From: Sarcocystis neurona
Lineage: Eukaryota > Apicomplexa > Conoidasida > Eucoccidiorida > Sarcocystidae
Assembly: GCA_000727475.1 (NCBI GenBank)
Contig: KL647295.1
Span: 174,839 to 238,838, forward strand
Direction of reading: 5' to 3'
Length of the DNA stretch: 64,000 nt
The notes under the pieces were generated by a model that saw nothing but the letters and a program-made list of their open reading frames with translations, made no database searches and was not told the DNA's origin. Every line of letters begins with the position of its first letter. Within the stretch, counting starts at the first letter, position 1. A program made the position numbers and the translations under genes. Positions 8,225 to 64,000 of this stretch are shown here, piece by piece.

Positions 8225-11200
8225 GTAAGCAGGACCCGTCACTCGAAAAAGTGCAGCAGACTTTGCGGTGTCCATAAGTCGGGGTCCAGCGGGTGAAAAT
8301 GGTCTGTTGCAAGAGATGTTTTCCGGTATTTGCTCATACAGAATTCTCCCCTGTTTCTCCAAGCGGCGTCATACCTTTTTTCTGACGCCTCTCTGTGTCA
8401 CCTCTGCTTAAGTACCCGAAGCCTACTTCTTCTGCGTATCAGCTGCTTCTCTCCCACGGAGGCACCAACACCAGATATGCCTACTGCTGTGTGGCTACCC
8501 GCCCTGCACGGGTCCCTGCAAGAGTGCTGTCTCTGTGTCCATGTCGTGCGTATCCCCTCCTGGTTCTTCTGCGGCGACGCCTCGTGTCTGGTGAATGGCA
8601 ATTGTCTATTCAGCTTGTAGAGCACTGCAACTGTTGCGGTTCCTGCAAGAGGAAACATTCGCGTTACGCACGCTGATTCTGCTTATCTGCCGGTGCAGCT
8701 GTTCTCAGCTGCTATAGTTCAGTAGAAACTGTAGGCGGTGCTGCCGCGCACATGTCACCTACCTCTACGCCGACTTCCCCTGCCTACTACTGTTGGTGCA
8801 CTTCTGCCTTACTTTCTTGCGTGGTGCTTCGGCGCTCCCGCCTATTGTTTCGTCGCTACTGCGGCGCAAAACGGACCCCCAGCTGGGTGAAGCCTCTGCA
8901 GGAGCTGGTGAGGGCGCCGTTGCACACACACGTTGACACTTGCTCCTGCAGCTGCCAAGAAGGTTTGCTTTTTCCTAAGTGAAAGAGACACAAATAGATG
9001 CAAAGGGGGATGTGGAAACACCCACCGTCTCAGCAATATGTGGTACGGGCAAGTCCAAGCACGCATACGTAAACGTTTGCACGTCCCCCTTTCTCTTTGT
9101 ATATATACATATATACACATATACATGTATGTATGACGACGTACGCGCACCTACATCACAGATGCGCCAGCTGCTGTAGTGATTGACTTGGTTGTTTTCT
9201 AGCCTCCGACTCAAGTTGCTGTTTCTACGTACTTCTGGGCAATCATGCTGCGCCCCTCGCTGGTGCTGTTGCTGTCTGTCTGGGAACGACTGCTGCGGCT
9301 TTGACCAGCGCAGCCCAGCAGTTGTGCGAACTGCGGCTGCGGCAGTTGCTCCCAAGACTGGTGCCGCAGTATTCCTGTCTCCGTTCGCGACGCTGCAGCG
9401 GCTGCCGTGGTTGCTTCTGTTGCTGTTCTTACGTCTGTTTTTTTGTTGCTTGTGATGCAATGACGCCTTTGCAGCTCTCATTTGCACTTCATATGTGCGC
9501 TACAGTGACCTGTACGCCGAAGGCTACGCAGAGAGGCCGCCCCATATTGGGAAGTGGGCTGAACACCCAGTCCTGCAGTTTCTGTATGAAAACAAAGAAG
9601 AAGCAGAACTCTTCATCCCGACGGATATTCCTCTTCATATACAGGTACGACACTGCGTTGTTGGACGTGCGTGTTGACACTTCTTCCTGTGGCGCGGCAT
9701 ACCTTCAGAGGTGAGACGACGCCCTACCTCCCTGTGTAACTACTACGCATATGTCAGCATACCGACAGTTCTTCGACTACACACCTATTCGTGAATTGAC
9801 CTGTGCGTCTCAACAACTCTTTCCAGTGCCCCTCTCTGCCTCTCCATCTCTTCCTCATCCAAGCTGTCCTGAGGCGCCCACCAGCGTCTTGAACGCGAAG
9901 CACCTGCGGAGCATATCTTCTCCATGTATTCTACACACTACCGACCCAGCACTGTCTTCTCCATTTGTAGGTGTGAGTGTCTCTTCGTTCTCTACAAGTA
10001 GATGTAATACGACGTAGCATACCCTGCGTAGTGCCGCCTTACGAACAGAGGGAGCACGAACGCTTCTGCAGGCCTCCCCAGAAGTTCTCAACGTCCACCT
10101 ATACAAACACCGAGCGAGACAAGGCCGAAGGGGCCTTGTCTCACACAGCTGCTGAATAGCCTTCTACGTATCTGGACGCTTGTGAACATTGTCGCCTCCG
10201 CGCAAAACCCCGTGTACTTCACCGCACACACACACGAAGAGCCAGACATTCACACAGGCTTCGGCATCGTCTCCCGCGTGCCTGTGTACACAGACGCAGA
10301 CACACGTATTCGCTTAGGTCCTTGCAAGTGCACAACAATGTTTGCATACGCGAGTAAAACTATAATATTTGTGGACGGCGGTATGGCTCCCTGCTCCTGT
10401 GTAAGACGAAGCCGGCATGTGTTCGTTGGAGGGAGTACACTACAGGAAAAAATTTGATCCCATACGCGTACACCTACACGCCGACACACACACACACACA
10501 TACCCTCACACAGAGGACTATATTTTCGCACTCGCAAATACACGCGCATGTGCGGAGGGGTGTGCACTTCCTGTCTGCGTCCCGTTTTTTTTCTCTCTCT
10601 CTGTCCCTCGTGTCTCGCCTGTTCTTTTCTCTCCCTGGGGGGAAGTGAAAGTTTTTATTGTACGCCCTCTGGTTGAATTGTATGCAACCAGGTGGACTTC
10701 GACAAGGCTCTGCGTGGGACTGAAGACGAACGGCATCTTGCTCTTTACGAGCTGTGGCACACGCTGTGGTTCATGGTGACGGAGCTGAGCCGAGCGGATC
10801 ACTTCTGGACGTGGTCGAGAAATAGGAAAGCAAACCAAGTGCTGCCTTGGTGGAACGTCGTTACAGTTGGGCTGCACAAACCGCTTCTTCGCCGTAAGCA
10901 GTGCAGACAACCTTGAAGAGAAAGAGAGGGAGGAAAACAGAAGAGAAGACGCACACAAGCATGCACACAAACTGGCACTTTGGCGTGCCTACACGCGTAC
11001 GTCTTTCTTCCGTTTCGTCTGAGGATACACGTATATGTGATCGTGCCTATCCATGTCTGGGCGAAGAAGGTGACAGCGAATGAAGTCAGCCGTCCCCGTG
11101 AAAGTTGCTGAACTCTGTGCGGCTGCTCACTCTTCGTGCAGGAAAAACAAGAGACGAGCACGACAAAAGGCAACGAGCGAAACACGTACACAAAAACGAA

Positions 11201-13573: not shown

Positions 13574-13607
<34 letters not shown>

Positions 13608-16600: not shown

Positions 16601-19600
16601 AGGCGAGACAGTGAAAGCGTGAAAAGCATTGGGCTGTTCTCTCCAAGCACACTCGAGTTCGGCTGAGCAGCGGCGCGCTGTCGTGCTGCCCCTGTCTGCG
16701 GCGCGCCGTGGGGTACACGCAGGTGCAACAACAGCTGCTCGTACATTCCCCGCCGCACGGGCACACGGGCGCACCAGCGCGGCTGCAGCAGCAGAAGACA
16801 CAGAGCATTTTGTGTTGACGAGAGTTGAGAGCCACGTGTATGCATGCGCTCGTACAGTGCGCGGACCGCTCCCAAGAAGTCTTGTGGACTTTGCATTCCT
16901 GTGCCTGCACGTACATGAGTCGCTGGCATCTCTGTGACCAGCTGCGCCTAGGAGTCCGTGACAACTGCACACGGCCACCGCGTCGACCGCGCAGAGTGTG
17001 AGCGCTGTCCTGTGCGGTCACTCTGTAGCTGCTGTTGCTGCCTCCTCGTCGTCCTGCTGCGCTGCGACAGTGCTGGCTCTGTTTTGCTGCTGTTTCTGGT
17101 CTGTTGTGCTGCTGCTGCGGGTGTGGCAATGCTGGGGTTGTCTCGCTGCTGTTGCTGCCCTGTCGTGGTGCCGCTGCGCTGCAACGGCGCTGCCGTTGTT
17201 ACGCCGCCATGACTATTGCTGTTGTGCGGTAGTGTGTGGTGGTCTGCGGAATCAGGACAGCGCCGTCGAAGAGGGGACGTCTTCGCCTTTCGCCCAAGAC
17301 GGCCCGCCGGAAGATTGTCACAGCTTTCCATCGCAGCAGAAGAAGACGGTGCACTTCACATATAAAAATCGCCGCCTGACCATTCACCCAGACAAGTGTG
17401 GCAAGGACGCGACGTTTGACTACGTCGAGGAGGTGCCGTACGCAATGCTGCTGATTCCCCATGACCTGGCCACCAGAGATGGAAGACCACATCAGCGGCG
17501 GCAGTGGCACTACCAGGAGAAGCAGCGGCAGCAGCAACAGCCGTACCACTGGGGAGACAGCGGACACACAAGGGTACGCACCATTCCAGGGGACATCGCA
17601 GACGCTCTGTGGATCTTCAGCCCTACCTCCCATGCCAAAGTGAGCGACGCGACAACCCTGTCCAGCGGGAAGCTTGCTGCCCTTGCCAGCCTAAACACGG
17701 GAGGACACGCTCAACTTTACTTCCTTGTTCTTCCTGCTGTAGCTCTCTTCTTCTCTTCTATATGTTATATGTACACGTGTACGCCTCGGCCGTAGACGTG
17801 GGGGGATGCTCAAGTTTACTCTGTGGTCTTCCTTGTGCAACTCTCTTCCTCTCTGTCGACTGTATATCTGTACACACGTATATGTGTCTCTGCCCGTCGC
17901 TTCCCTCCGCGTTTGGCTATGTAACTACGAATGCAAGAAGGCGCGACCTGCAAAGTACAGAAAGACTCGATATCCCACGACTCCTCTAGCAATATTCTAC
18001 TTTTATCTCTCTTTCTCTCTCTACCCTATCCGTGTGTAGAAGGCATACGTTTCTATGTAGGTACGCGCGTGAAACAGACAAAGATGTGGACACCCCTCCA
18101 GCAGCAGCCTTTCGTCCTCGCCTAGCTGGCGAGTCCCATCCTCTCTTCTTCCAAAAACCGTGTTGTACTGGCTTCTACACGCCGTCACTCCCCAGAGCGA
18201 GCAGTCTGCCGTACGTTCCTCGTAGTCACATCACTGTAAACACATATGGCTCTGCATGCGGACACGTATGTACATATATATACATACGTATACGTAGATA
18301 TGCGTACATACACACCTCAGTGTATATACATGTGTGTATCGTCGTATGTGGGTTTGGGTGCGCGGTAAGGAGATGTTTGTTGAATTTTTCACCGACAAAC
18401 TCGAGAGAAAAAGTGGAATTTGTGTAAGACAGTGTGCCGACGTGTATGTGTAGAAAAACTTCTGGACAGCGGCTCACACACGTAGGCCGTGAAGGGACTC
18501 ACGTGGTGCTCCTTTCTTCTTGCGTGCAACACCTCCACAGCGCGGACCATAACAATACGGTTCAGCCGCGCCCCGTCATTCCCGTGCCGTGTTGTTCTTC
18601 CGCTTTTGCCGCCGGTGCTGCACCATCTGCGTGTTGCTGGTCTTGCTGTTATTCTGCTGCTGTTGTGTCTTTCCCTCCCGTACTCCTGCTGCATCTTTTT
18701 TCCTTCTGAAGAAGCCTGAAACTCTGCTACGTCTGATAGCCGATGCTGATGTCACGCTGCTGCGAGGTACAGCTATTCTGCTGCTGTGCTCTGCTGCTGT
18801 CGTGTCGCTGTTGCTGCTCGCTGGCAGCTGTGGCTGGCAAATCGCAACCTGAGTCCCTTGGAGGAAGAGCCGCTGCTGAGTACTGCGCCAGGTGCGGTGA
18901 TGCACCGAGGCTACCGCATGATATTCCGCACGTCCTATGCTGCTCTGATGGAGTCGTTCCGGGCTGCCTTGTTAGGAGAAAACGACACACCCGACTGGCA
19001 GCGAGAGACCGCGGGGGTCGGTGCAGAGGCGGCATGGCACGCAGAAGGTCTGGGAGAGAAAAAGCGCGGAACAAGCCTTCCTGCCGACTTCTTCTCTCAC
19101 TTTTCTGAATTCGGCGCCGAACGAGCCGACGACGAAGCAGCTGACGAGGAACGGGATCGCCAACGTCGGCAGCGCACGCAACCGCTACAAGAAACGCAGC
19201 AACAACAGAGGTACATGGCATATCAAAGGAACGCTTTGGCTGCTGCTTTCAGAAGTCGCAGCAGCACCAGGCCCTTCACAGTCGTGCTGGCGGGTCACTC
19301 CCAAGGGGGAGTGGGTGCACAAATTTGCGCGCTGTACCTCGCCAAGCTAATGCGATCTTCTGTCCGAGATGGGACGCTACGACTTTACGTAGTCACCTTC
19401 GGCGCCCCCCCGGTACATCGCACCTCTAGGAAAAAGGAAAAACTGCCCTTTTTATACCCCCTTCTCTGTCAGTAGAAAGAAAGACGGAGAGAGAGGCCCA
19501 GAAAAAGGCTTGCCGTAGCTAGACGCGGAACTGGTACGCACTGCCTGGTGAAAGTCGCACACGGCTGTGTGGTGAGCGGCAGCGACGGCCGAGTGTCGCA

Positions 19601-22600
19601 AAGCGGCAGCATCAGGAACACACACGTCCCACTACAACTTCCCTCACAGGCATTGTCGGCTTCCTGCTGCTGCTGCTGCCACGCGTCTTCCCGGCAGTTT
19701 TCCTGTTTCATGTAAAGAGAGATGTCTTGAAGAGAGACGGTGGTCAACGCGGCGTGAAGCGGTCGCCCACAGAAGTGTCAGGCTGACAGGCTGCCTAGGA
19801 ATGAGAACAAAACCTGTTGTGTTCGTAGAGGTAGCTGCCTGTAAGAGGAAGTTCACTCATACAACATTACTCGCATGCAAACAGCACGAATTCCTTGCTT
19901 GCCGCACCACGAGTTCTGAAAAGCAGATACAAACCCGGCACCGCTGGCTGAGGGTGGTCCTATCCTGCCCCCGCGACAGTAGTGGAAGCAGCAGCACGAG
20001 CGTGCAACAGCGGAGAACAACCCAGCAACAAGAAGAACGACACTGACTCTAGCTACAACAAAAAATAGCGCTTCAAGAGAACGTCTTCGCACCGCCTTCA
20101 AGAAAAAGCAGAAGTCAGGCCTGGCACAAATAAATTTCAGACGCCTGTAGGCGTCGCCAGCACGCGTATACTTAGTCAAGCGAATCTAGTTACCTAGTCC
20201 CTATATCCGCAAACACATATCTATACAGGAGACATACGTGTACGACATACGTAAACATAGATATATATATGTTATATATATAAATACATATATATATATA
20301 AATACATATATATATAGATAAATACATATATATATATATAAATAAATACATATATATATGTATATATATATGTATATATATATATGTATATATATATATG
20401 TCTGCACACACTGTATATCTGCGTACTCCTGCTGTCGAGTAGGCAAATGTGTGAAGGTCTTCGGGGCTTTGCGTGCGGAGCGCTGGGTCCTGTTGGAGCG
20501 TGCCACGACATAAACTTCAAATTGTGTCCATCTGACTAGCTGTACGCAAACGTATACAGACATATATTTTTCTTCCTTCCACACACATATTAAACACGTG
20601 CTCCCCTCGCTTTGATCTCTCGGCCCCTTTCTCAATATTTCTCTGTCTTTGTCTGTCTGTCTGTCTCTCTCCTTCGTCAAGAGTTTCGCGCGCACGGACC
20701 GCAGTCAAATCGTGCCATGTGTCCTTGTCGCGGGATTTATTTGAATGCCCGGGCTTGACGACAGACTCACCACGTGTGGGGCTCCGTACAGCTACTTTCC
20801 CCCCACCTGCGTGTTGCTGCCGCTTTGTTACCATTCGTATGCGTGTGCTACCGCCTACTTATCTGCAGTGCAGCAAGGGCTGCAGTGGGAAGCCTGTGTA
20901 CCTTCACGTGTGTGTATATTTAGGCGTAAAGCATTACACAGACGCACACACACCCGAAGTGCTACTTCCGCGGGTAGTGCAATATATGCATCTATATGCA
21001 TCTATCTATATATATATATATATAAATTTATAAATATACACACCGTGTGTGCCGCTGTGATGCGTGGTGCACTGCAGGTGCTGCCGTTGCGCTGCTGCTG
21101 TGCCTGAAATGTTGGTGTTGCTGAAGTGCTGCTGCTGCAGCAGTTGTTTTACTGCTGTTCGGCGATGGTGCCGCTGTTGCAATGACCCAGGCCGTGCTCT
21201 GGTGGAGGCGCCACGTCTGCGTTGGTGCGGGTAACTCAAAGAGTGCTCGTGCTGCTGCAGGTGCTGGTGTGTTGCTCCTGCGGTGCTGCAGTGGCACTGC
21301 TTCCGGCTGTGTCCCCTGTGTCTGTACGTCTTTTTTGCTGCTGCTTTCTGGCGTATCGCTCCTGTCCTTGCTGTCATGTGGCCGCTGCTGCTGTTGTTTT
21401 TCCCGGGGGGCAGTGGGCCAGCAGGAGAATGTACGAGGAAATCCGCGAAAATGGGGTGCTGCTGCATGAGCTGGCAGCCTCGGTGGATCCTGTGCCGACC
21501 GCCCTCTCTCATGATTTGTTGACGGGTCTCACGTCGAAGCGCAGCATCATCTCTGTAAGTCACCATCATCTCTGTAAATCGGCTTCATCTCTGTCGCACA
21601 TCCCCCCCTCCGACGCTTGGCCATCACCCACCAACCCCACCCGTTCCAGCACCAACCCTCCCCACTGGGAGAGGCCCCTGGGGTGCCCAGCAACTCGCCC
21701 CGCGTTCCACCGGCCGCGTCGACAGGCTCACAGTCCTCACCGCAACTGCTTTCAGCAGAAGCAGCAGCAGTAGCACCACGTTCACCTAAGTAACAGAACC
21801 CACCTTACGGACACGGGCCCAGAACAACCACCATTCGCCCACCATTTTACCAGAGCCCCACCACTTTCTCTCACCACCACCCCCACTACTACTACCACCG
21901 CACAGCTGCATCCACTCTTACCACTCCTGTACCAGAACCCCGGTCCCTCTCACCACCTTACCGCAGCCACCACCTCTTCCCCCCCGCCACCAAAGCGCAT
22001 TCGTCACCAGTCTCGTCATCAGCTTCACACCACCAGCACTCTCACTCTCACGCACAACATGAGGGTCGTGTGTTGCCGTTATCACCACCATTCTCACTAC
22101 CGCGCTTTTCCCACCACCACCACGTTAGTCGTGTTTCCTGCTGCCAGCACCGTCGCTGTCCTCACTCCCCTATGTCTTGTCATTATAACACCATGCTGAC
22201 CACATAATCACCACCATCCCGACTACCACCGTTTCACTTGTTTCGCTTTGTATTTCTGACTCTCACAAATCTGTACTCTCTTCTGTTTCGTGTCTCTCTG
22301 TTCTTCACGTGCTTTCCTTTCCCCCTCATTTCCTGCTGCCCTCTGTATCCAGCCACGCACCACCTCCCTCCTTCCGTCCTCCTTGTTTTCCTCCTTCTCC
22401 TTTTTCTGCCTATTCTCTCGCTCTTCCGTTCCACTTGCAGTCTGCTGGTATAATAGCTCTCTGAGTCGCACTAATAGACTCACGCTTCCCTCATATACTT
22501 CTAGTCTTCCTCGTTCCTTCAGATTCGTCTTGTTTTACATCTCCTTCTCATGATGACCCCTCCTTTTATTCTCCCTTTCTCTCCTCCCCCTCCGTCTTCC

Positions 22601-28600: not shown

Positions 28601-29142
28601 TCCGGTAAAATCACGTATTTGTTTCCCCTGTTTCTCTTCGTAGACGAAAGAATAGAGTTTGGACAGCCACACAGGCCGAATACCTCTGCTTATGTCTCTC
28701 TTATTCCGTACACCTCCGTGTAGTTATACGAGTAGGTGAGGGCGCACCATATTGCCTGGTCTGTGTGTACACATGTTCGAAGAAGGAAAGTGCAAAAGGT
28801 TCGTTCATATATTGTAGACGGACTTGCATTCAGAGAAGGGGAGAAAGGAAGTGTTAATGTAGTTGTACATCCATTTCTGCACTGGTTAACTACGTTCTGT
28901 AACATCCACATGCGCGCAATTGCATCGCACTGGCGCTTTTCATAATACTTGCATATGTTACAGCTTTTTGGTGATGTCCACCGAGCACAGCGGTGGAGCT
29001 TGTAGGCGTAAGCAGTCATTCTGGTAAATACCCTTGGACTCTTCCCTATTTTCCCGTCTACTGCAGCGCGCCTGCGTTTTTGATGAGACGAGTCACCGTA
29101 AACGTGGAGTCAGGGCTACTCCACTGCCCTTCAGCGCACACC

Positions 29143-29177
<35 letters not shown>

Positions 29178-30286: not shown

Positions 30287-30772
30287 AGTGGGACGCGTTA
30301 AAGCTTGTCGAGCTTTTCGTATGCGTTGGCGTAGGCGCATCTATACATTGTGTGTATATATATATATATATGCCTACACGTATGTAAATACGCAACCAAA
30401 TACGGGTGTGAATTGGATGTTTCGTGGTACGTGGTGGCGCTGCAGTGCAAAAAAGAAGAATCGACGCATTTGTGATTAGGGCACCCGTAGCAGAGACCTG
30501 GTGTGGAAGAGTATAAAAAATTGTGCCTTTCCTTTGAAATACTAGATGTGTACTTTTTCCAGCACGTCGTCTTACAGGCCGACACGATGTGGTCTTTTTA
30601 AGCATGAACTTTCCTACCACTACACTCAATACATACGTATGTAGAGACAGAACTTCAAAGTGCTTTGGAGAGTATCTACAGTATCGCAAACGATAGTATT
30701 CGTGAACAATGATGTGTACAACTTCAGCGTGCACATCCACGCAGAAAGCCGACTATGCCCCCCTGCATATGC

Positions 30773-30803
<31 letters not shown>

Positions 30804-31299
30804 CATATATATCCAAATGCTGGTCACATAAGTTTGCCTTCGCGAAGAAGACAGATCACGCCAGTCATACGCTCAGGAGTGGTGTTAGGAAAAAGGGACT
30901 GCCCGACCGAAACCTCCAGTACATCAGCCTCTGTGCCGAAGCCCTCTGCTAGCACGAACTTAATGCAGAGCCGCAAGCAATAACCTGTAGTAACTTACGT
31001 CACCACAAACCCTCCACTCAGAATCCATAGCCTTATTCAACTAACACGCAGGTATACACACACATACACATATGTACGTATATATATATATATCTATCTA
31101 TATATATATATATATACGTACGTATATGCATGTGCACATATTCACACGTGTATTCACATGCGTTACTTATGAATATTTTTATTCATTCTCTCTCCGTGTA
31201 TACGCATCGAAACACTCTCTCCGCCCCCATTCCGTCACACGTATTTCCGCGGAGGCTGGGGCACTTACGTTCGATGAGCCCAGTTGCTGACTACTACAG

Positions 31300-33520: not shown

Positions 33521-33523
<3 letters not shown>

Positions 33524-33562: not shown

Positions 33563-33565
<3 letters not shown>

Positions 33566-33582
33566 GTCGTAGTACGTACGAC

Positions 33583-33985
33583 NNNNNNNNNNNNNNNNNN
33601 NNNNNNNNNNNNNNNNNNNNNNNNNNNNNNNNNNNNNNNNNNNNNNNNNNNNNNNNNNNNNNNNNNNNNNNNNNNNNNNNNNNNNNNNNNNNNNNNNNNN
33701 NNNNNNNNNNNNNNNNNNNNNNNNNNNNNNNNNNNNNNNNNNNNNNNNNNNNNNNNNNNNNNNNNNNNNNNNNNNNNNNNNNNNNNNNNNNNNNNNNNNN
33801 NNNNNNNNNNNNNNNNNNNNNNNNNNNNNNNNNNNNNNNNNNNNNNNNNNNNNNNNNNNNNNNNNNNNNNNNNNNNNNNNNNNNNNNNNNNNNNNNNNNN
33901 NNNNNNNNNNNNNNNNNNNNNNNNNNNNNNNNNNNNNNNNNNNNNNNNNNNNNNNNNNNNNNNNNNNNNNNNNNNNNNNNNNNNN
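33583..33985. other. Assembly gap (403 N)
   Basis: Unbroken run of N. Any reading frame crossing it is an artefact of N translation. It lies between the two convergent genes and probably costs no exon of either. Confidence 0.99.
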
Positions 33986-39000: not shown

Positions 39001-39322
39001 CGTATGAATATCTATCTATCTACCTATATATATATATATGTAGGCGTACAGACGAGTATATCAAACGTAGACCTATATATACATTCAGACATTCAAACGT
39101 GTAAGTCAGATACATCTACATATATATATATATACATGAATGTATGTGTGAATTCTTAGAGTGTGATATTGCACAAGAAGAGAAACTCACGTCTTTGTCT
39201 GTAATTCCCTTTCCGACTTTTTCTACGCTTCACCCAGGAAGACAGCAAAGGCAAAGATATCCTGCGCGCGTGTGTGTGTCTGCGTCTACACAGACGCGAC
39301 TAAAGCACTCCGTGTACACACG

Positions 39323-39353
<31 letters not shown>

Positions 39354-42300: not shown

Positions 42301-43316
42301 CGTACCCAGCATACCGCTGCTTATGGAGCCAGACTTCACTCGTACGGGCAGACACAGCAGCAACTTGCCGCGAGAGTTCCACGCCGGAGAGACCCTTACT
42401 GCAACACACGTCCGACGGCCAGGAACAGAACTACCTCAGAGACGCACGCAGCATCAAATATATATATATATATATATATATGCAGGAAAAAACTGAGTTT
42501 CTCTTTCCTTCTTGTAGATCTATGTGTGTATGTATTCTCCTCTGTATCATGTGTTACATGCAAAAGTCCGGGAAGAGCAGGACTTCCAGGACCAAAGCGC
42601 AGTATCCCTCTCACTCCTCTACACATACTCACGTGGGTGCAAATGCTAGGCACATGCACACATGTACATATATATATATATACACATACACCGCGTAAAC
42701 CATTTTTCATACTCAGAACTCTATGTACATATACATATATATATATATATATCTTCACATTTACATACATATGCACAGACCCCCACACACACATACTGAT
42801 ACACAGACATCTGTATATACAGATACCCTACGACCTCATCCTCAACTGTTTATCTGGACTTGGGTACCGGTGTACATACACACATATATACATAGATGTG
42901 TATATCTGCATTTGCGTGTAGGTGTACACACACACATAAATGAATATGTATATATATATATACGTTTCGCAACGCCGCTTTCTCACACATATATATATAT
43001 ATATATAGACACTAAGGTGTACATATACATGCGAGGAGCATGGAGGATTGAGAACGGTTTACTTGTGGAGTGGAGCGAAGTGCAGAGAATTCTTCGTCCC
43101 CAGCAAATCTGCTGCTGCGTCGCCGCGCACCGAGCCACGTGACACGGTGCCTCAGCTCTGCCTCTGCGTCGGAGTCACTGGGAAGCGAAGCCGAGCTGCC
43201 CTGGTCGCTGCCGCTGCTGGTCACGTTGTCGCCTTCCTCTTCTGCTTCCTCTGTGCCCCTTCCTGCTGCACCCCCGGCCTCCGTCGACACAGCAGTATTA
43301 TCTTCTCCTCCTCTTC

Positions 43317-43347
<31 letters not shown>

Positions 43348-46300
43348 GGCTGTTCCGGCGCCAGCAGGCGCCCCTTCTTCTCCTTCTGCTCCTGTTGCTT
43401 CCCCTTCGAGTCCTCCTGTCGCTGTTTCTTCTGCTGCACCCGGTGCCGCTGCTGCTGCTGCTGCTCGGCGAGAGGTAGCAGTCGTTGCTACTGCGGCGAC
43501 TGCAGGAACGGCTTCTCCTGCTGCTCCAGCAGCTGCAGCCGATGCAGCACCATCGTCAGCAGCAGAACCTGCGACAGTCCGCCCACTCTGCGTCGCACGG
43601 CTTGCTGCTGGGCGAGATAAAGGCCCGAAGCTTTGCTGCGCACCGACAGCCACAGCAACGGCTGGCGTCGCTCTCTCTGCTTCTTCTCCACCGCGGCGGC
43701 TGCTTCTTCTCGCAGCTGTCGCTGCTGTGCGACCCGTTACGCGTGTTCTTACACGCAGCGTACTGCCTTCGCCAGCGGCACTAGAATCTGTATGCAGCAG
43801 CTGCTGCTGACCATGCAGAAAACAACGAGATCCACTCGCCTCCGCTTCCTCTTCCCCAGTCCCCCCTCCATGCTGTTGCTGCCGCTGTTCGTTGTCCTCG
43901 TCTTCCATTTGCTGCTCTTGCTCCTCCTGCTCTGCCCGCAGACCCTCCTCGTCTTCTCCTGTCCTCCCTGTGTCTCCGCTGCTACTGCTGCTGTTCTGCG
44001 CCTCTCCTCTTGCAACTGTTGCCCTTCTTCCTCTTCCTCCTGCTGCGCCTTCAACTGCTGCTGTTGCTGCGTGTGCCTGCCGCTGCTGTGCTGCTCCACA
44101 GATCACGCGCCCTTCACTGTCTCCTGTCGCTGCTTCTCCTTTGCTTCCTTCTTCTGCTCCTGCTCCTCCCGCAGCAGGAGTTCCTTCAGCGGCAGCTGCT
44201 GACACAGCAGGAGCGCTTGCTGCAGCAGCGGGTCTCCCTGCTCTCAAACTCCCGGTCACTTGATAGGGGAGCCCGCTGCTGCTACTGCTGCTGTTGTTGC
44301 TGCTGCTCTCCCTGTCTTCCACTGCTGCATCGCTAGTGCGCCTCTGCGGGTGCTGCTGCCCCGGGACGTCCTTCTCCTCTTCGCCTTCTTCGATTCTCTG
44401 CTGCAGCAGCGGCTCCTGCCGTCCGCTGCTGCTTTCTGTGGTCATGTCGCACTCGCTCCCCGTCCTGCTGCTACTGTTGCTCCTGACCCTGCGCTGCTGT
44501 CCTCCTGGCGCCGCAGCTGCTGCAGGGGAAGAAGACGACGAGCAGGAAGAAGACGACCTGCGTCCCTCAACAGCAGCGCGTGGGTCCTGGATGCGGACAC
44601 GTCGGCTCCCCTGCTGCTGCTGTTGCGGCCTCCTTTGTTGCTCCTGTTGCTGCTGCATCGCGTCGGTTGGCTGCTGCCGGTGCTGTACGTCCTCTTCGCT
44701 CTGGAGTTTCTCGCTGCTGCTGCTGCTTCCACCATCCCTTGCCGCAGACCTCTCTGCTGCTCTTCCTCCTCCTCCTGCTGCCGTGATCGCATGCCGTCTG
44801 CTGCTGCTGTCGCTCTGCTCTTCCAGGCCGGTGCAGCAGCCCTCATCTTCGGCCGCTCGCCAGCTGCTGCTGTCGCTGCTGGTTTCGAGAAAATCCTCGC
44901 CCTGCAACAGCAGCGTAGACGGCGTCACGAAGCCGCCGAAATCGCCAGCCCGTCCGGCAACAGCAGCAGCAGCAGTAGAATGACTCGCAGACGCAGTAGC
45001 ACATCCACGAGGAGAAGGAAAGGTACAGGAGGACAGCGAGCTGCTGCCCTGAAACATCGGACCAGCAGTTTCTGCCGCGTCACGCCGTTCGCTCTGCTCG
45101 CGCGAAGTTTCCTCTGCGTCCTGCTGCTGCTGTTGCTCTTCTGCCGCAATACGATGGAACCTTCTGGCTGACACTTTTCGTCCACGCCCGCTGCTGCTGC
45201 TGCTACTTGCTGCGTCTTCAGCAGCAGAGGCGAACGCCGCAGCCAAAAACGTTCCGCGCCTTCCTTCTGTGTTCTCCGCAGCACTGCCACCACCTCTCAC
45301 TCTTCTTCTGAGTGCGCCGCCTCCTGCCTCTGCTGCTGCTGCTGTCCCTGCTGCTGCCGCTGCGACTGCAGTGGCTGCCGTACCGCCGCCTTCGCTCGTG
45401 GGGCTCTTGCGTAACAGAAGCAGGCGACTGTTCGAACTGCTCGTCGACGACCGTTCTCTTCTGTTTCGCTTTCTTCCCCTGTCTCCACTGCTGTTGCTGC
45501 CGTTGCTGCTGCTACTGCTGCTGTCTGCCGCCGCTGCGGACGGGTCACCACGGTCGTGCTCCTTCTCAGGCGGCGGAAATGCAGCCACATCTTCCGGCTC
45601 GGGCTGTTCCGATGCGGCCACATCAGAAATCCCCTGCTGCTCTCGCTGCTGCTGCACCTCCTGCTCACCAGGCTGCTGCTGCTGCTGGCACGCTCTCTCA
45701 CCACCGCTGATGCTACTGGCATCTGCAGCAGCAGAAAGCGCCCCTTCCCGCTGCGAGATGCGTTGTTGCTGCTGCGGCTGCTCCCCTCTCAGAGGTCCTT
45801 GATGCAGCGCTGGTGGCTCCTTCGCAACCCAAGCGTCGCCTTGTCCTTGCCGTTGCTGCTGCGCTTGCTGCTGCTGAAGCAGTGGCAGGTCCTCCCGTTG
45901 CGTCTCCTGCTGCTGCACCTGCTGCTGGTCCTTGTGCGACTGCTCCGCCGTGTGCTGTTGCTGCTGCTGCCGCTGTTGCTGCTGCTGACGCTGCTGCTGC
46001 TGCAGGAGCAGCAGGCGTCGCTGCTTGCGTCTGCAGCGGTGGCGCAGCATGCGGCGGTAACAGTCTTCTTTTATAAGGCGCTGCACCACGTGCACAGCAG
46101 GCCATCCTGGCCAGCAGCTGACACGCGAGCGGAAGCAGTAGGAAGCAGCAGGATGAAGCCACAGCGGCTGCCCCGCTTCACGGGTACTCTCCACCCACTG
46201 GCGCATCTCCCGCAGCGCCTGCTGCACCTCTGCCTTCTCTTTCCGCGCAGTAGAAGCCTCTCCTCTCTCCTCGACACTCTGCTGCTGCTGGGGCGTGGCT

Positions 46301-49300
46301 TGCTGCTGCTCCCGCTGTGGGGTGGTTTGCTGTGGGGTGGCTGGCTGCGGCTGCTGTTCGACGCCGGCTTCCTGCTGCGGCTCGGGGCTGAGACGCTGCT
46401 GCTGCCGCAGCTCCGAGGAAGCAGCACGGCGAAGCGAAGGCCTTGCTGTTGCGCGAGTCTCGTCCGGTGTCAATTCGGCAGCACCCACTCCACCAGGTGG
46501 GGACGCAGCGCCTGCTACAGCACCCTCTACAGCAGTATCACCAGACAAAGAAGCAGCAGCAGCAGGAACTGCAGAAACGGTTTCTACCTCTTCATCCGCA
46601 GCAGAGTCAGAGAAAGGGGCATCAGTGGTGGGAGACCCAGCAGCAGAAGGCACACCAGCAGCAGCAGATCCAGAGGAAGCTGCGCTGTCCTCGGTGGGAG
46701 AAGCCGAAGGAGGACGCGCAGGTATGGAAAACAGCAGCGACGCGCCGTGGGTGCCTGATGCCCGCAGCGGCACACGAAGACGCACCCGGGATGTCCCCGG
46801 CGGAGGAGGAGGAAGCGCAGCAGCTGCAGCATCGTCGTCGGCAACAGCAGGACCGGCAGCGGTAGCAGAAGCCGCAGCAGCCGCCCCCTCCGCCGAAGAG
46901 AGGAAGGAAATGCGAAACATTGCAGGAGGGAAGGAACGATCCCGTTGCGAAGAGGCTCGCGCTGCATGCTGCTGTTCAACAGACACCTGCTGCTCTGCAT
47001 GCGTGGCGCTGCTGCTGCCCTCTGGTCCACTAGTACTGCTGCTGCGCCCGCTCCCAGAGGGAGGAGCTGCTGCGTTGTCGGCGTTCGTGGCTCCCTCGCT
47101 GTTGCCGCTACGTGGGGTGTTGCTGTTATTGCTATTGGTGGGGCTGCTCCTAGAAGCTGTCACCGTGCAGCTGCTGCCGCTGTCGGTTCTCCCTGTTGGC
47201 TCGTCACCTCCTGCTGCTGCAGAGGATGCGTCTCTTGCTGCTGCTCGTACTGCCGCTGTTTCCGCCAGCCCTCCTGCTGTTGCTCCCTCGCCTGCTATTG
47301 CTGCTTCGCCCGCCGCGGAACCGTCCCCTTCCCCGCGCGCTGCTGCGAGTGCCGCTCTCCCTGCTGCTGCTGCGTCCTCTGCTGCTGCTGTTCCCGCTCC
47401 TGTCCCTCCTGCCGAGCCTGTCGCTGGTGTTGACGCTCCTGGGTCTCTTGGAGAGAGTGTTGCTGCTCCCGTCCCTACCGCTGGGGAAGCCGTCCCTTCT
47501 GCGGGGGAAGCCGTTCCTCCGGCGGGGGATGCCGTTCCTCCGGCGGGGGATGCCGTTCCTCCGGCGGGGGAAGCCGTTCCTCCGGCGGGGGAAGCCGTTC
47601 CTCCGGCGGGGGAAGCCGTTCCTCCGGCGGGGGAAGCCGTCCCTCCTGCAGGGGATGCCGTTCCTCCTGCGGCAGGAGCCGTTTCTCCTGCGGGAGAGGC
47701 CGTTCCTCTTGCGGGTGAAGTTGTTGCTGCCGCCGTTGTTTCTGTTGCTGCTCCTCCTGGTGCCGTCCTCCCCCTTACTGTTGCTGGTGCTTCCTCTCTT
47801 CGCAGTCGACGACGTGCCGCGCGATGGCGGCTGCTGCGAGAAACAGCGAATGAAGCGGAAGACATTTCCTTCCTTGTGGGGAAGGCCTGGATGCCCGATC
47901 CGCCTAGCAGCAGGCGCTGCTGCGGTGGCTGGCGTGCCCGGGCGCATGCACTGCAGCAAGAGCAGCAGCACAAAAGAACAGAAGCAGTGCGCCATGACAA
48001 AGAGTAGCCACAGCAGCAGAAGGAGCAACAGCAACAGGGCGCCGTAGCAGCAGCAGCATAGGGCGCAGGTCGAACGCGAACGGAAGGTCGTGCTGCGGCG
48101 ACCAAACAGCAGCCGCAAGGAGGAGCAGGCAACAAGAAGGTCGCAGCAGTAGTAGGAGGATGCAGCAGCACATCGACAGCACCACAGGCAGAGGGCCTCC
48201 GGACGAGGATGTCAAGCGCTAGCAGGCGTGCAGCGGGTGAAGGAGCGCCTGGACCCATACAACACTGGCAACACGTGGGCGGCGCCAGCTCTGCGCAAAT
48301 AGCAGCAGAGAGTAAGCAGCAGCAGCAGCAGGAATACGTCTTCCTCGACGAAGTGCAACAGCTGTAGAAGTGTGGCACCAGTTTATGTACAGGAAGGCAA
48401 TACCAGCAACGCAGCAGCGCTGAACAAGAAGCAGCAGCATCACAGGGACAGGAGAGGTGTAGCAGCGGCAACAGGAATACGTCTTCCTCGACGAAGTGCA
48501 ACAGCCGTAGAAGTGTGGCACCAGTTTATGTACAGGAAGGCAATACCAGCAACGCAGCAGCGCTGAACAAGAAGCAGCAGCATCACAGGGACAGGAGAGG
48601 TGTAGCAGCGGCAACAGAGAAGTGGTGCATGCGCAGCAGGCAGCGTGTGTGCACCAGCAGCAGCAGGAGACGGCACAGTCGCAGCACCACATGCATACCA
48701 GCAGCGGTTCAAGAGTTGCGGCTCCCCCAAAAGGCGACGGGAGGTCGCGTACGTGGACAAAACTACGCTGCATCGAGCAGCAGTTTCCCGTCCCTGCTGC
48801 TGCAGTGCACAATCCCCCTTCGTGTGCGTCTGCCCGAATACGACTGCCGCGTTGGTGCGGCCCGCTATCGCTGCTGCTGCTCCTGCTACTGTTGGTGCTC
48901 CTGCTGCTGCTCGAGATGCGTCAGGAACAGCAGCAGTGCAGCGCGCAACGGCGACCGGCTGCTGCCAGCAAGCAAACAGCCTTCTCGCAGCTCCCCCTCC
49001 GCCACCAGCCCACACCCAGCTCTGCTGCAGCGTCACGTTCTTCAACCGACAGCCCGTTTTTCCCTTCAAACTGCGCGGTGCGTGGGGGACATCTGCTGGG
49101 GACTCTCCCTCCCACTCTGCCCACGGCGCCAGTTCATTCCGCCGGCGCGCTAGCCCGCGTCTACGCCGCCTGCGCAGCTCTTACAGTGGCCCGCCGCCAC
49201 GCGTCAAAGAAACAGGCAGAGCCTCTGACCGCGTGCAGGCTGACCTGGAGGATGCTGCAGCTGCTGCTGTTGTCTGTAAACCCCACCCACCCCCCCTGCA

Positions 49301-58300: not shown

Positions 58301-61300
58301 AAAACTTCATAAATATATACATAGAAAGAGACACAAGTGTCACTGTGGGTGTGGCTACAAATATGTGTGGAGGAGCCGTCTACAATAAATCTTGTACGCA
58401 TAGATGCTGCTGGGTGGGAAGAGAGCATCAGCAAGAGATACGAGTGGCAGCGACGCGCAGGGGCCGAGAGACGCGCGCGAGTCTGCGTCCCTTTCTTCTC
58501 CCTGGCTGCCTGTTTCACGGCCTGCGGCTGCAGCTGCTGACACGCGTACGGCCGGACGGCAATAATAATACTCAATAGGTGTACATACATATGTGTATGT
58601 GTATGCATGCGCAGACAAGACGAGTGAGAGTGAAGTAGGTATGTACGTACATGAGTTCGCAAGAGTAGAGATAAGAAGGAGAAATTCACAGGGAGAAGTG
58701 CAGGCAAGCATCTGTGCAAATATACGTGGATATACAAGAGGGAGTGGCCTGTGTGTCTATCCGTGTGTGGGGTCTGTGTGACTGCGGGAGCGGAAAGCGA
58801 GACAAATACGTATCGCTCGGCATGCAGCCCCGCGGACACCGGCGACACGGGATCTTTTTTCTTCAGAAGAGAAAAGAAGCGTATGCTGCCCCACTTTTCT
58901 TCCTCAAAACTCTACGCACGCACGACTGGACAACTTGACAACTACACAAGTACACGTGTATATAAATATATATAGAGAGAGTGTGACGGAGCGACATGGA
59001 GAAGGGAGACGCAGAACGGGTAGAGAGATCGACCCAGCTGGGAAACGGCTGGAGAAGAGTCCACGCCAGAGAGATAGAGAGACACATGGACACGGGGTGT
59101 CCTGTCACGTGTGAATGTTCCGATATGTCTACACAGAAAAAAATCCATATATATATATATATGTATGTATATATATACATCATATATATAGAGAGAGAGA
59201 ACGTGGGTCAATATACTTGTATAGACACAGAGGTGCCCTGAAAAAAAGCCGAGGTCTTCTGCGTCTGCCTGTCAGCAAATATACAGATACTCCACGGAAG
59301 GAACACACAGTTGAAGTGACATACGCACCTGTCGAACCAAACATACATGTGTATCTGCGCATGCAGTGGAATATACGTATGTGAGCTGAAAAGGAAAAAG
59401 CAGCACACTCGACAGGGAAAGAGAAGAGCGCGACTGCCACACAAAGACGCACGGGGCAACCAAACTCACGTTCCTGCAGCGGCGAGCCCCCGTTCCATCG
59501 CAGCGCGGGCGTTCGCGCTTATCGAACTGCCGCACCGTTCCTGCATCAGCCAGAGCGACAACAACGCACGCGGCAGCAGCAGCAGGTAGAATGCAATAAC
59601 CCGCCGGCAGTACACGCAACAGCAGCAGCAGTGGTACCTCCCGCAGCAGGAGCACGACGCACAGTGTTGGGGCAGCAGCAGCTGCTGTAGCTACGAAGCA
59701 ACAGTCACTCCACGTGTAAGAAAAAAGCAGCTGCAGTAGTGCGCAACACACAAGCAGCTGCAGCAGCAGAGACACATTCGATGTGTTCCATATCCTCCTT
59801 GTCCAAACGCTTCTCAGCAAGCAGCACCCGCTGCTGCGCGACCCCATGCAGGAGCGGCGCCGAGACGCGGCAGCAGCGGTTCACGGGGCAGAGGACACGC
59901 CGCACATTCTCAACAGGGACAGCCGCAGCAGCACGAAGAGGCCTACTACCTTCTTCACAGAACGCACGCAAGGATAAATATAGAATGCTTACTTTTACGC
60001 AGTGGGATTCACTGACGCTTACAATTGCTTATATATGTGTGTACGCGTATACTATATATATATTTATATTTGCATATAGCTATACGCAGATGCAGTGACA
60101 GACAAACAGATGTATATACACACATACACACATGAGAAGAGCGTAAACATGTATACGTCTCTTTGCGTGAACATGTTTATATGTAAAGACACACGCACAT
60201 TCATTTAGAGTGTGTGTATATGCTGTGTACGGGTTAGATCGATATGTATACATACGAATACATACTCGCTGTGCGCGGACGTTACAAAAGTAAACCAGGA
60301 CGCTGTGTGCTTCTGTATGTATAAATATATATACATGTATATGCATTTGCTGACAAAAATTCTTCTTGTTCGCTCCTGGGTGACATTACCGTCTTCACTT
60401 GCCGACCACCAGAGGGTGTGGGATGCGCGAGGCAGCGTAGCGATGTGTTTTACTCGATCAGAGTGGCAGGTGCAGACCTGACTGCATGCGCATTCCCAGC
60501 ACACATCGCAGCAGCAGCAGCAAAGTTGGGACTGCATGCGCATTCCCAGCACACATCGCAGCAGCAGCAGCAAAGTTGGGAGACAGCGGCGAGACGGCTC
60601 CGCAGCAGCAAAAAAACTATGTAGCAGCAACAGCAGCAGCCATGCAGTCATCAGCACGAAAACGTCGAGGAGAAAAGGAAGAAGCAGCTGAACTCGAGGG
60701 CGCAGTGCAGCACTACCAGCAGCAGCGCAGATGCAAAGTGGCAGCCGCAGGCAAAAAACACCCGACGCGTAGTAGTACCGGGGAAATGGGGAACAGCAGT
60801 AGCTGGTGCGGGAAGCTGACGCGGTGAAGTCGCACGGTCGATACCGCCAGAAGAGCGGCAGCAACGAAACAAGCAGCACCAGCTGCAGACGTCCGGCACC
60901 AGACGCAGTAGCAGCAGCAGCGAAGAGAGGTAGCAGCAGCAGCAACACATCCGCAGACCCACGCACCAGCAATGGCAGGGGAAATCTACACAGACAGGCG
61001 ACGGGGAAGGCAAACGGCAGTAGCAGCAGCAGACTACCAATGCGCAGCAGCCACACGACGGTCCCGCATCCTCCTCCTCCTTCTCTCTCTTCGCTTACAC
61101 GCATACATGTATACACAGATGTACACAGAGGAAGAAAGGCTGCAGCAACAGAGTCATGCAGCAAGAAAAGCTCTGCAGCAGCCTCAGGAAAAGACGCAGC
61201 AACACCGGCAGCAAAAGAGCAAAACACACATCAACGACACGGCGCAAGAAGCGCGGAGAAACGGGGGCAAGCAGCCGCTGAAAAACTCAAGCAAGCCACG

Positions 61301-62287: not shown

Positions 62288-64000
62288 CTGCAAGAGCAGC
62301 AGCAGCAGCAGTAGCAAAAACAGGAACTCTTCATGCAGCGCCAGGAATGACAGCAGCAGCAATATCACCAGCAGCATCGCCTGCAGTCAAGGGTAGCATC
62401 AGCAACAGCAGGAGCAACCCCTGCAGCTGCGACGCTAAACGCAGCAGCAGCAACCCCACAGCGGCTGACGCAGCGACCCTGCCAGCAGCCATAGCAACAG
62501 CTTCTGCAGCAGCGGCAGCAGTTCCTCTTGCAGGCCAGTAAACCAACCATCCTCCTGCAAAACCGCAGCTACGGCCACTCACACCAACAGCTCCGCCTAC
62601 ACACATACACATGTACGTATCACGAGTATATACGTACACACAACAGCCACCTCGGCATCTATCTCTCAATATATAGAATGTATTTACAGGCATATCTACC
62701 TATACGTACCTGTCTGTACGGATCTCTTTCTATACTTGTGTGTGTCTCTCTCTATACGTGTATACTTATATTCTTCTGCGAATCTATCGATGTACCTCAT
62801 TGCCCATTTCTCTCTATAAAAGCATCTCTACGGTATATGTGTTTCTCTCTCTTCCCTCTCCATGAAGTGTATTTCCCTGCAACTTCATGTATGGCTACAT
62901 GTATCTCTCTGTATATCTATCACTCCGCAAGGACACATATATATATATACATATATACATATGCAGGAGAGAGATGTGCACCTGTCTACCTCTGGACCTT
63001 TGGCCCTATAGCAGCAGCAGTCAGCCGGCAAGCAGGTGCAACACAAGAACCGTCGGGCTTCTGTCTTCGACGCGAAGGTCTCCAGCACCCACCACCCCAC
63101 GCATCTGCTCCAACACCCACCACCCCACGCGTTCTCTCCACCCAGCACGCCAGACGTCTTCTCCACCAACCACCACCCCCCGCGTCTCCCCCACCACCCG
63201 ACGCGTCCCTGGCTGCACGTGCAGGTCGTGGCAAAGACAAGACGTTTAGTCAAAGAAAAAGGAACATACTCAACGTTCTGTGGGAAGGCGCGCAATCAAA
63301 GAGATGTCGCCTGACAAACAAGGACAACACATGCGCGTCTCCTTTACACCCCGTGCTGCTGCAGAAGGCACGTCACGTTCACGAGAAGCGCGGCAGCAGC
63401 ATCAGAGGCCGCTGCTGCGACAACACGAAATGCAGCAGCAGCAGCTGCGATGGAGCGGCCGCGGACGGCAGCGGCCACCTGCTGACTTCACAGAGAGCGA
63501 AGAACAAAACACTGGAAGGGGGGGAGATTGTAGTTATCGGCTACTGCTGCTGCTGCTTCTGCGAGTAAGAGAAAAGTGGTGTCTCCCTGCTTGTCCAGCG
63601 CAACCCAGTTCCGAAGCGGACAGACTCTTCTGCTGCTGCTGTGGCTGCAGCCGCTGTTCGTGGCGCCGCCGACCCTCCGTCCGAAGTTGCTGCTACCGCG
63701 TATGCTGCTACTGCTGTTGTTCCTAGCGGTGGTGGTGGTGCTGCTGTTGGTGGTGCTGCTGCTGCAACTAGTGCGACTCTGCTGCTGCTACAGCCTGGTG
63801 CTCCTCCGCGTCTGCAAATCTTGCTTCCCCTGCTCCTTCTGCTATTGCGGCTGGTGGTGTCGCCACTGCCGTGCTGCTGCCAGCCACGCAACGCTGTCTT
63901 CGCGAGGCTCTTCGTGTGCTGCTCCTCTAAAGGCTGTTGCTAGGTCTGTTGCACCTGCTGCTTCTAGTGCTGCCGCTTCCAAGGCCACGCTCCCGTTTCT
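62288..64000. other. Upstream intron of the WDTC1-like gene; WD repeat 1 not found
   Basis: Sense (-) strand is CTG-rich next to the acceptor (62290-62520) and CAG-rich at about 63600-63850. 62600-62960 is TA/TC microsatellite. 63060-63200 holds four diverged CACCCACCACCCCACGCG-type repeats. The last 150 bases are open on the - strand as an Ala/Glu-rich frame (ALEAAALEAAGATDLATAF) and on the + strand too, so no exon can be called. The start codon probably lies beyond 64000. Confidence 0.5.
63075..63200. repeat. CCACC-type minisatellite
   Basis: Four diverged copies of about 30 bp of the form caacacccaccaccccacgcg on the + strand. It gives GWWG-type repeats in - strand frames, which are not taken as coding. 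Confidence 0.75.

What the first reader, a model, noticed from the sequence alone, without database searches (positions are those of the whole stretch)
9240..62520. CTG tracts on the sense strand sit directly before many 3' splice sites, and flip with gene direction
Of 23 acceptors I placed in two oppositely directed genes, about 12 are preceded within roughly 250 nt by a dense CTG-type tract on the sense strand: 9475, 17256, 18828 and 21414 on +, and 62287, 60481, 59540, 47833, 41896, 40290, 37280 and 36019 on -. Exonic repeats in the same genes are mostly CAG on the sense strand (for example in 43063-47833). So orientation follows gene direction and intron/exon state rather than genome strand. 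CUG-rich RNA could act as the polypyrimidine/branch region or bind a CELF/Muscleblind-like factor. CAG repeats in coccidian proteins are known; I am not aware of this intronic rule.
Basis: partly seen in the sequence, partly recalled or inferred. Interest (0 to 1): 0.78.

Follow-up and report, generated by a model that had tools for sequence, protein, structure and literature searches.

The report
CTG-rich stretches before intron ends
In a single-celled, coccidian-like parasite, repeats of the letters CTG often sit just before the end of introns, most likely because the cell's splicing machinery favours U- and G-rich, A-poor sequence there and the genome is full of CAG/CTG repeats, rather than because CTG is itself a signal.

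Summary
All 12 named acceptors follow an AG and have 80-250 nt of sense-CTG tract in the preceding 250 nt; 13-16% of all window positions reach 80 nt. It recurs outside the window. In 34 introns with splice sites fixed by split Pfam domains, CTG hexamers exceed CAG hexamers in the last 300 nt in 18 against 5 (p=0.011). In 85 predicted introns outside the window the tract count is 26:9 (p=0.006). But it is neither a rule nor CTG-specific: 12 of 41 homology-supported acceptors have a tract of at least 30 nt, against 6 with CAG. The same flanks prefer TG over CA (21:5), poly-T over poly-A (15:3) and G/T over A/C runs (19:3), and the T-over-A skew stays when tracts are masked. A low-power genome-wide test upstream of strong donors is even (44:44 loci). 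Best reading: an extended U/G-rich, A-poor 3' part of introns in which abundant CAG/CTG repeats survive mainly as CTG. A CELF-like three-RRM locus exists; direct CUG reading is untested. Intron-end pairing is not supported. The organism is probably Sarcocystis neurona (inference).

The parts
9225..9474 (+). 250 nt before acceptor 9475: degenerate CTG/TTG-rich tract
   Evidence: 162 nt CTG tract, 32 nt CAG tract
17006..17255 (+). 250 nt before acceptor 17256: CTG tract
   Evidence: 86 nt CTG, 0 CAG; acceptor recovered by gene finder
18578..18827 (+). 250 nt before acceptor 18828: CTG tract before the lipase open frame
   Evidence: 80 nt CTG, 0 CAG; acceptor recovered
18828..19412 (+). Exon(s) of a class 3 lipase-like gene, homology support for the gene direction
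   Evidence: Pfam PF01764 E=4e-6 at residues 167-223 of the frame starting at 18750, no stop between; exon limits (iteration 0); one search splits it into 18828-19136 and 19253-19412
21164..21413 (+). 250 nt before acceptor 21414: CTG tract
   Evidence: 90 nt CTG, 0 CAG; acceptor recovered
62288..62537 (-). 250 nt before acceptor 62287 (- strand): CTG tract
   Evidence: 250 nt CTG, 85 CAG
60482..60731 (-). 250 nt before acceptor 60481: CTG tract
   Evidence: 181 nt CTG, 0 CAG
59541..59790 (-). 250 nt before acceptor 59540: CTG tract
   Evidence: 202 nt CTG, 41 CAG; acceptor recovered
47834..48083 (-). 250 nt before acceptor 47833: CTG tract
   Evidence: 171 nt CTG, 39 CAG; the open frame continues upstream to 48525, so this acceptor is uncertain
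43063..47833 (-). Very repeat-rich exon with CAG-type sense repeats coding Q/A/S/T runs
   Evidence: 58.7% CAG tract, 25.8% CTG tract; translation
41897..42146 (-). 250 nt before acceptor 41896: CTG tract
   Evidence: 210 nt CTG, 38 CAG; acceptor recovered
40291..40540 (-). 250 nt before acceptor 40290: CTG tract
   Evidence: 198 nt CTG, 0 CAG
37281..37530 (-). 250 nt before acceptor 37280: CTG tract before a WD40 exon
   Evidence: 205 nt CTG, 58 CAG; WD40 E=4e-9 in the exon; acceptor recovered
36020..36269 (-). 250 nt before acceptor 36019: CTG tract
   Evidence: 115 nt CTG, 0 CAG

Best explanation
Introns of this genome have a long U- and G-rich, A-poor 3' part (A/T skew between -0.12 and -0.27 in 40-nt steps from -40 to -400, and -0.47 in the last 40 nt). 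CAG/CTG repeats are very common in and around its genes. In the 3' part of introns they are kept mostly in the CTG orientation, because that orientation supplies U and contains no AG, while CAG would bring A residues and a ready-made acceptor every three bases. TG/CA and T/A repeats are sorted the same way. So the CTG tracts are a by-product of ordinary 3' splice-site constraints acting on an unusual load of trinucleotide repeats, and may serve locally as a substitute pyrimidine tract. Shown: the orientation bias, its generality over motifs, its extent. Inferred: that selection at splicing causes it, and that the tracts are used as part of the acceptor signal.
For: Acceptor-side bias in introns fixed by split Pfam domains (CTG over CAG hexamers 18:5, p=0.011, n=34; CTG over CAG trinucleotides 31:9, p=0.0007, n=41, -400..0) and in predicted introns (41:10 of 108 measured; 26:9 of 85 outside the window). 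The same flanks favour TG over CA 21:5, T5 over A5 15:3, GT-only over AC-only runs 19:3. Skew -0.178 with tracts masked, and -0.164 in the 25 windows without any tract. AG dinucleotides nearly absent at -25..-5 (0.007 per base) with A 8.8%, T 39%. Dinucleotide shuffles of the same flanks keep a strong CTG:CAG asymmetry (169:19 nt), so local composition already predicts the orientation.
Against: Observed CTG tract (719 nt of 10,200) is about four times the shuffle mean, as expected for true microsatellites but also for a selected element. The skew reaches at least -400, far beyond a normal pyrimidine tract. The summed tract bias in the 34-intron set is only p=0.054, and p=0.11 without the extreme C24 intron. 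Second half minus first half of predicted introns is in the expected direction but not significant (40:25, p=0.085 and 25:19, p=0.28 outside the window; 35:26 and 25:21 with the other gene set). Around the 41 Pfam-anchored exons taken as they are, the 700 nt upstream hold 914 nt CTG and 1,006 nt CAG hexamers (322:208 for the 25 with short upstream open frames). The genome-wide pattern test 250-280 nt upstream of strong donors is even (44:44 distinct loci), although it mixes exonic CAG with intronic CTG.
Confidence: 0.62

Rival explanations
1. CUG-rich (and UG-rich) RNA upstream of acceptors is a specific splicing element read by a CELF- or MBNL-like protein that helps define the 3' splice site.
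For: Three RRM exons on one strand at C9:1828239-1831533 (L031). One RRM has CUGBP1 as best solved relative (3nmr, E=8e-20); the C-terminal one also matches CELF1/2 RRM3 (2cpz, E=1.8e-17). The flanks are UG-rich (TG:CA 376:87 nt). CUGBP2 binds GU-rich motifs at the boundaries of branch sites (PMC2715136, abstract and passages seen). Observed CTG tract is about four times the shuffle mean.
Against: PABP and PUF60 are the best matches of the other two RRMs. CELF genes are widespread (recalled), so presence says little. In PMC2715136 CUGBP2 silences exons. CTG is no more asymmetric than TG or T runs. 29 of 41 homology-supported acceptors lack a tract of at least 30 nt within 250 nt. MBNL-type zinc fingers were not searched.
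Confidence: 0.13
2. Pure avoidance of AG upstream of the acceptor: (CAG)n is purged because every unit is a cryptic acceptor, and CTG is simply what is left.
For: AG is nearly absent at -25..-5 (0.0074 per base against 0.035-0.047 further upstream). CAG tract is 0 nt in the -25..0 bin of 34 introns.
Against: TG over CA (21:5) and GT-only over AC-only runs (19:3) are as strongly sorted although neither orientation contains AG. Further than 50 nt out AG stays at 0.044-0.047 per base, against 0.056-0.086 on the donor side.
Confidence: 0.1
3. Intron ends pair: CAG near the donor and CTG near the acceptor of one intron form a long stem that brings the splice sites together.
For: The donor side leans to CAG in the homology set (tracts 13:4, p=0.049 in all 41; tracts 10:3, p=0.09 and hexamers 15:7, p=0.13 in the 34) and 32:22 (p=0.22). 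One 1,239-nt kinase intron (C24) is CAG/purine-rich in its first half and CTG/pyrimidine-rich in its second, with 188 predicted pairs between its first and last 350 nt; a C3 intron has 62.
Against: Donor-CAG and acceptor-CTG do not co-occur in the same intron (8 of 40 against 20 of 94, p=1; 10 of 39 against 12 of 69, p=0.33; 4 of 10 against 5 of 24, p=0.40). Donor-side CAG bias is absent (25 CTG against 18 CAG) and weak genome-wide (37 CAG against 27 CTG distinct loci, p=0.26).
Confidence: 0.05
4. Intron-wide strand asymmetry from a transcription-coupled mutation process, with no splicing constraint.
For: T over A skew is present through most of the intron body (-0.04 to -0.11 in deciles 3-7). 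TG over CA is also seen on the donor side (15:6, p=0.08).
Against: The skew is not uniform: between -0.06 and +0.02 in the first two deciles and -0.18 to -0.25 in the last two, where CTG tract cover is also highest. A process tied to transcription alone would not know the distance to the acceptor.
Confidence: 0.06
5. Artefact of eye-made gene models: sense-CTG stretches look non-coding and were called intron, sense-CAG stretches look coding and were called exon.
For: A self-trained gene finder fell into the mirror trap and called antisense exons over CTG tracts. The open frame around 47833 runs on to 48525.
Against: The bias is seen beside Pfam domain fragments without any gene finder and in introns fixed by domain continuity and splice scores.
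Confidence: 0.04

Closest known systems
Polypyrimidine tract and AG exclusion zone of U2-type 3' splice sites
   Same: U-rich, A-poor and AG-poor sequence before a YAG acceptor
   Different: Here it is U/G- rather than U/C-rich, and the skew reaches at least 400 nt upstream. PMC2483917 (passages seen) takes poly-T concentrated between branch point and terminal AG as the likely ancestral pattern, with broader distributions in fungi.
CAG repeats in coding sequence (HAARs) of Eimeria
   Same: CAG-type repeats dominate exons on the sense strand (PMC9131526 passages)
   Different: Described for coding regions; the passages seen say nothing about opposite orientation in introns before acceptors.
CELF/CUGBP binding at GU-rich motifs near branch sites (CUGBP2)
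   Same: UG-rich motifs upstream of acceptors and a CELF-like locus in the genome
   Different: No evidence of binding here; CUGBP2 in PMC2715136 (abstract and passages) silences particular exons, it does not mark introns at large.
Myotonic dystrophy CUG repeat RNA and Muscleblind sequestration (recalled)
   Same: CUG repeats in RNA
   Different: Pathological expansions in a 3' UTR; here short, degenerate, intronic tracts.

Membership tests
U2-type 3' splice-site region (polypyrimidine tract plus AG exclusion) | YAG at the intron end | tested here: met
   34 of 34 homology-fixed introns end in AG, 28 CAG, 4 TAG, 2 AAG; AG was required by the search
U2-type 3' splice-site region (polypyrimidine tract plus AG exclusion) | U-rich, A-poor stretch and AG depletion just before the acceptor | tested here: met
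   -25..-5: T 39%, A 8.8%, AG 0.0074 per base
U2-type 3' splice-site region (polypyrimidine tract plus AG exclusion) | Pyrimidine (C+U) rather than G richness | tested here: not met
   G 28.1% exceeds C 24.0% at -25..-5; GT-only runs 456 nt and CT-only runs 385 nt at -330..-30. Met only for U
U2-type 3' splice-site region (polypyrimidine tract plus AG exclusion) | Branch-point motif upstream | tested here: inconclusive
   CTRAY in -60..-12 in 3 of 34, YTNAY in 10 of 34, no clear enrichment over the donor side
CELF-regulated intronic element | CELF-type protein with three RRMs encoded in the genome | tested here: inconclusive
   Three RRM exons on one strand in L031, taken as one gene by inference; one has CELF1 as best solved relative, the others PABP and PUF60
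CELF-regulated intronic element | UG-rich motifs upstream of acceptors | tested here: met
   TG:CA runs 376:87 nt, 21:5 introns
CELF-regulated intronic element | Protein binds these tracts and changes splicing | not testable with these tools
   Needs CLIP or a splicing assay
Intron-terminal inverted repeats (pairing ends) | Complementary tracts co-occur at both ends of the same intron | tested here: not met
   8 of 40 against 20 of 94; 10 of 39 against 12 of 69; 4 of 10 against 5 of 24

The most novel reading that the evidence does not exclude
In this repeat-laden genome, CAG/CTG microsatellites have been taken into gene architecture: sense-CUG and UG-rich tracts of up to several hundred nucleotides work as extended 3' splice-site signals, read by a CELF-like protein in place of a classic C/U tract, so that repeat expansion can create or strengthen acceptors while the opposite orientation is confined mainly to exons.
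Probability: 0.12. Interest if true: 0.68.

Novelty: new variant of a known kind. Interest (0 to 1): 0.36.

Why it matters
If the simple reading holds, repeat orientation becomes a cheap strand and splice-site cue for annotating repeat-rich coccidian genomes, and a warning: a gene finder trained on CAG-rich exons calls apparently false antisense exons over intronic CTG tracts (seen). If the bolder reading holds, it would be a natural system in which CUG repeats are splicing signals rather than poison.

Tried and rejected
Self-trained gene finder on all sequence: rejected, because splice consensus drifted and antisense CTG tracts were called exons. Replaced by a model with tracts set neutral, trained on 41 Pfam-anchored exons; later versions. 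These models place splice sites imprecisely: of the 4 domain-fixed introns lying inside loci, 2 donors (2843 and 5228 in L018) and 1 acceptor (5641 in L023) came out exactly. One search adds base composition at -25..-5 to the acceptor score, so tracts were counted only at -330..-30.

Weaker or mixed results: (41 anchored exons as they are, 914 CTG against 1,006 CAG hexamer nt upstream); iteration 0 (acceptors with a tract outside the window 14 CTG against 12 CAG of 47; iteration 1: 29 against 17 of 94); outside the window 23:16 (p=0.34); higher-scoring subset 13:11; higher-scoring outside subset 11:4 (p=0.12); half-against-half tests not significant.

Intron-end pairing: two vivid examples but no co-occurrence. 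Donor-side CAG preference: suggestive in the homology set, not seen, weak genome-wide (37:27 distinct loci). Branch-point role of CTG: no enrichment. The genome-wide count upstream of donors is low in power, because exact MAGGTRAGT also hits non-donors and exons carry CAG; it gave 59 raw/44 distinct loci for CAG and 56 raw/44 distinct for CTG (distinct = more than 300 nt apart, recounted).

Rows dropped: of 41 split-domain introns (37 fetched ends plus 4 inside 10-kb loci), 7 were dropped from the exact-site set (splice score of 5 or less, or domain-length deviation over 3); one of these (C44) is a likely paralogue of the kept C45. Results on all 41 are. Split pairs were picked by hand; pairs in one open frame or with large domain gaps were left out. 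40 further pairs were listed but never read. L001-L008 were left out of all counts because they were fetched by a CTG pattern. Protein search with the lipase-frame protein found no relative at E 0.001.

Literature: searches (one search failed on a character). I saw listings, starts of abstracts, and passages of PMC9131526, PMC5354109, PMC6381282, PMC2483917, PMC2715136; no whole paper. Nothing in those listings and passages describes oriented CTG tracts before acceptors; the 2014 genome paper on chicken Eimeria (recalled) was not sought or read.
Full report
What was tested. The window lies at G000:C8:174839-238838 of a 122.99-Mb, 74-contig assembly; the window is 52.4% G+C. Size and composition fit Sarcocystis neurona (128 Mb, 51.2% G+C in Table 1 of PMC5354109, passages seen); this is an inference and no call names the organism. 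CAG/CTG arrays of four or more units dominate the trinucleotide repeats of the window: 75 of 81 arrays. By a looser measure (30-nt windows with at least 18/30 match to (CAG)n or (CTG)n) 16% of the 304 kb held was tract, against 0.4% in base-shuffled sequence.

All 12 named positions follow an AG and have 80-250 nt of CTG tract in the preceding 250 nt of the sense strand, against 0-85 nt of CAG tract. Any position of the window reaches 80 nt in 13-16% of cases. A WD40 match begins right after 37280, and the frame opened by 18828 holds a Lipase_3 match about 420 nt on. Gene finders whose coding score ignores the tracts find 3 of 12 exactly (iteration 0) or 6 of 12 (with the two Pfam matches and a short composition term given). 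The others are unproven; at 47833 the open frame continues to 48525. The exon 43063-47833 is 58.7% CAG tract in sense.

Independent introns. To avoid eye-made gene models, Pfam families were searched in the whole assembly and neighbouring hits that continue one domain were taken as the two sides of an intron. The ends of 37 such introns were fetched and 4 more lay in fetched 10-kb loci: 41 in all. Before any splice-site choice, the 250 nt upstream of the downstream fragment carry a CTG tract of at least 30 nt in 12 of 41 and a CAG tract in 6 of 41; CTG trinucleotides exceed CAG in 29 and fall short in 10 (p=0.0034). Splice sites consistent with phase and domain continuity could be fixed in 34. 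In these the last 300 nt favour CTG over CAG hexamers 18:5 (p=0.011) and tracts 10:3 (p=0.09). The summed tract difference has a sign-flip p of 0.054, or 0.11 without one extreme intron. So the acceptor-side bias is real but moderate, and by tract length alone borderline in this set.

Predicted introns. With gold-derived splice models, 115 introns (both flanking exons scoring at least 3) were predicted in 25 sequences. At -330..-30 of the acceptor the tract count is CTG over CAG 41:10 (p=1.5e-5; 108 introns long enough to measure), and 26:9 outside the window (p=0.006; 85 measured). The donor side shows no bias, 25:18. Earlier and cruder versions lean the same way with more noise: iteration 1 (41 acceptors with a CTG tract against 22 with CAG, of 111; 37:20, p=0.033, of 134). 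Several subsets were not significant: iteration 0 outside the window (14 against 12 of 47), outside the window (23:16) and its higher-scoring subset (13:11), higher-scoring outside the window (11:4, p=0.12). A second-half-minus-first-half test was in the expected direction but not significant. The 41 anchored exons taken without any splice model show no overall excess upstream (914 CTG to 1,006 CAG nt; 322 to 208 for the 25 with short upstream frames).

Not CTG-specific. In the 34 introns at -330..-30, TG runs beat CA runs 376:87 nt (21:5 introns, p=0.0025), T5 beats A5 116:35 (15:3, p=0.0075), G/T-only runs beat A/C-only runs 456:91 (19:3, p=0.0009), TTC-type beats GAA-type 132:41 (13:3, p=0.02), and CTG beats CAG 309:78 (14:6, p=0.12). 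Pyrimidine-only against purine-only runs is not significant (12:9). A/T skew is -0.194; with tracts masked it is -0.178; in the 25 windows with no tract it is -0.164. In 40-nt steps the skew lies between -0.12 and -0.27 from -40 to -400 and is -0.47 in the last 40 nt. Along predicted introns it runs from between -0.06 and +0.02 in the first two deciles to between -0.18 and -0.25 in the last two. Dinucleotide shuffles of acceptor flanks keep a CTG:CAG asymmetry of 169:19 nt, so the orientation follows from local composition, while the amount (719 nt observed) reflects true repeats. CTG is therefore one member of a general U/G-over-A preference. AG avoidance alone cannot explain it, because neither TG nor CA repeats contain AG.

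Donor side and pairing. The donor side leans to CAG in the homology set (tracts 13:4, p=0.049, all 41; 10:3, p=0.09, and hexamers 15:7, p=0.13, in the 34), and one kinase intron is CAG-rich in its first half and CTG-rich in its second. This suggested end pairing, but the two do not co-occur within introns. A genome-wide count of (CAG)3 against (CTG)3 within 10-40 nt after strong donors gives 37 and 27 distinct loci (51 and 29 raw; p=0.26). The parallel count 250-280 nt before strong donors gives 44 and 44 distinct loci (59 and 56 raw). That is no support, although the test mixes exonic CAG with intronic CTG and many matches will not be donors.

Trans factors. An RRM search lists 80 matches. 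Three RRM exons on one strand at C9:1828239-1831533 (L031) resemble a CELF layout: the middle one has CUGBP1 as best solved relative (E=8e-20), the C-terminal one matches PABP best and ELAVL1, PUF60 and CELF1/2 RRM3 next, and the N-terminal fragment matches PUF60 best, then nucleolar protein 4 and Bruno-like proteins. The gene was not assembled, and no binding evidence exists. CUGBP2 contacts GU-rich motifs at branch-site borders in mammals (PMC2715136, abstract and passages). T. gondii branch hexamers of the type tctgac are listed in PMC2483917 (passages), but CTRAY is not enriched here (3 of 34).

Verdict. The likeliest cause is ordinary 3' splice-site composition (unusually long and U/G-rich) filtering the orientation of very abundant CAG/CTG repeats. 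A CTG-specific element read by a CELF-like protein is not excluded.

Noticed in passing
G000:C24:1619212-1620450 (L049, L086, L107): A kinase-gene intron of 1,239 nt that is CAG/purine-rich in its first half and switches at about nt 590 to CTG/pyrimidine-rich, giving a predicted long stem between its ends.
   Followed up: partly
G000:C1:4833588-4833801: Minisatellite whose unit holds a perfect donor-like CAGGTGAGT plus CAG repeats, several copies on the - strand.
   Followed up: no
L031 (C9:1824886-1834885), RRM exons at 3354-3566, 5426-5632, 6508-6648 on -: Three RRM exons resembling CELF/Bruno-type proteins.
   Followed up: partly
34 homology-fixed acceptors: Acceptor consensus is TGCAG|R: G at -4 in 18 of 34, T at -5 in 19 of 34.
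   Followed up: partly
window 9233-9422, 16963-17286, 18503-18715 on -: A self-trained gene finder calls apparently false antisense exons over the intronic CTG tracts, probably because CAG-rich exons dominate training; public gene models of such genomes may share the error.
   Followed up: yes
window 43012-48525 (-): 1,837-residue open frame made largely of Q, A, S, T and G runs, no Pfam match at E 0.1.
   Followed up: partly
window 33583-33985: A run of 403 N, probably an assembly gap.
   Followed up: no
34 homology-fixed donors, +10..+310: AGG/GGA-type repeats strongly favoured over CCT-type downstream of donors (159:23 nt, 12:2 introns, p=0.013), a purine-rich intron start.
   Followed up: no
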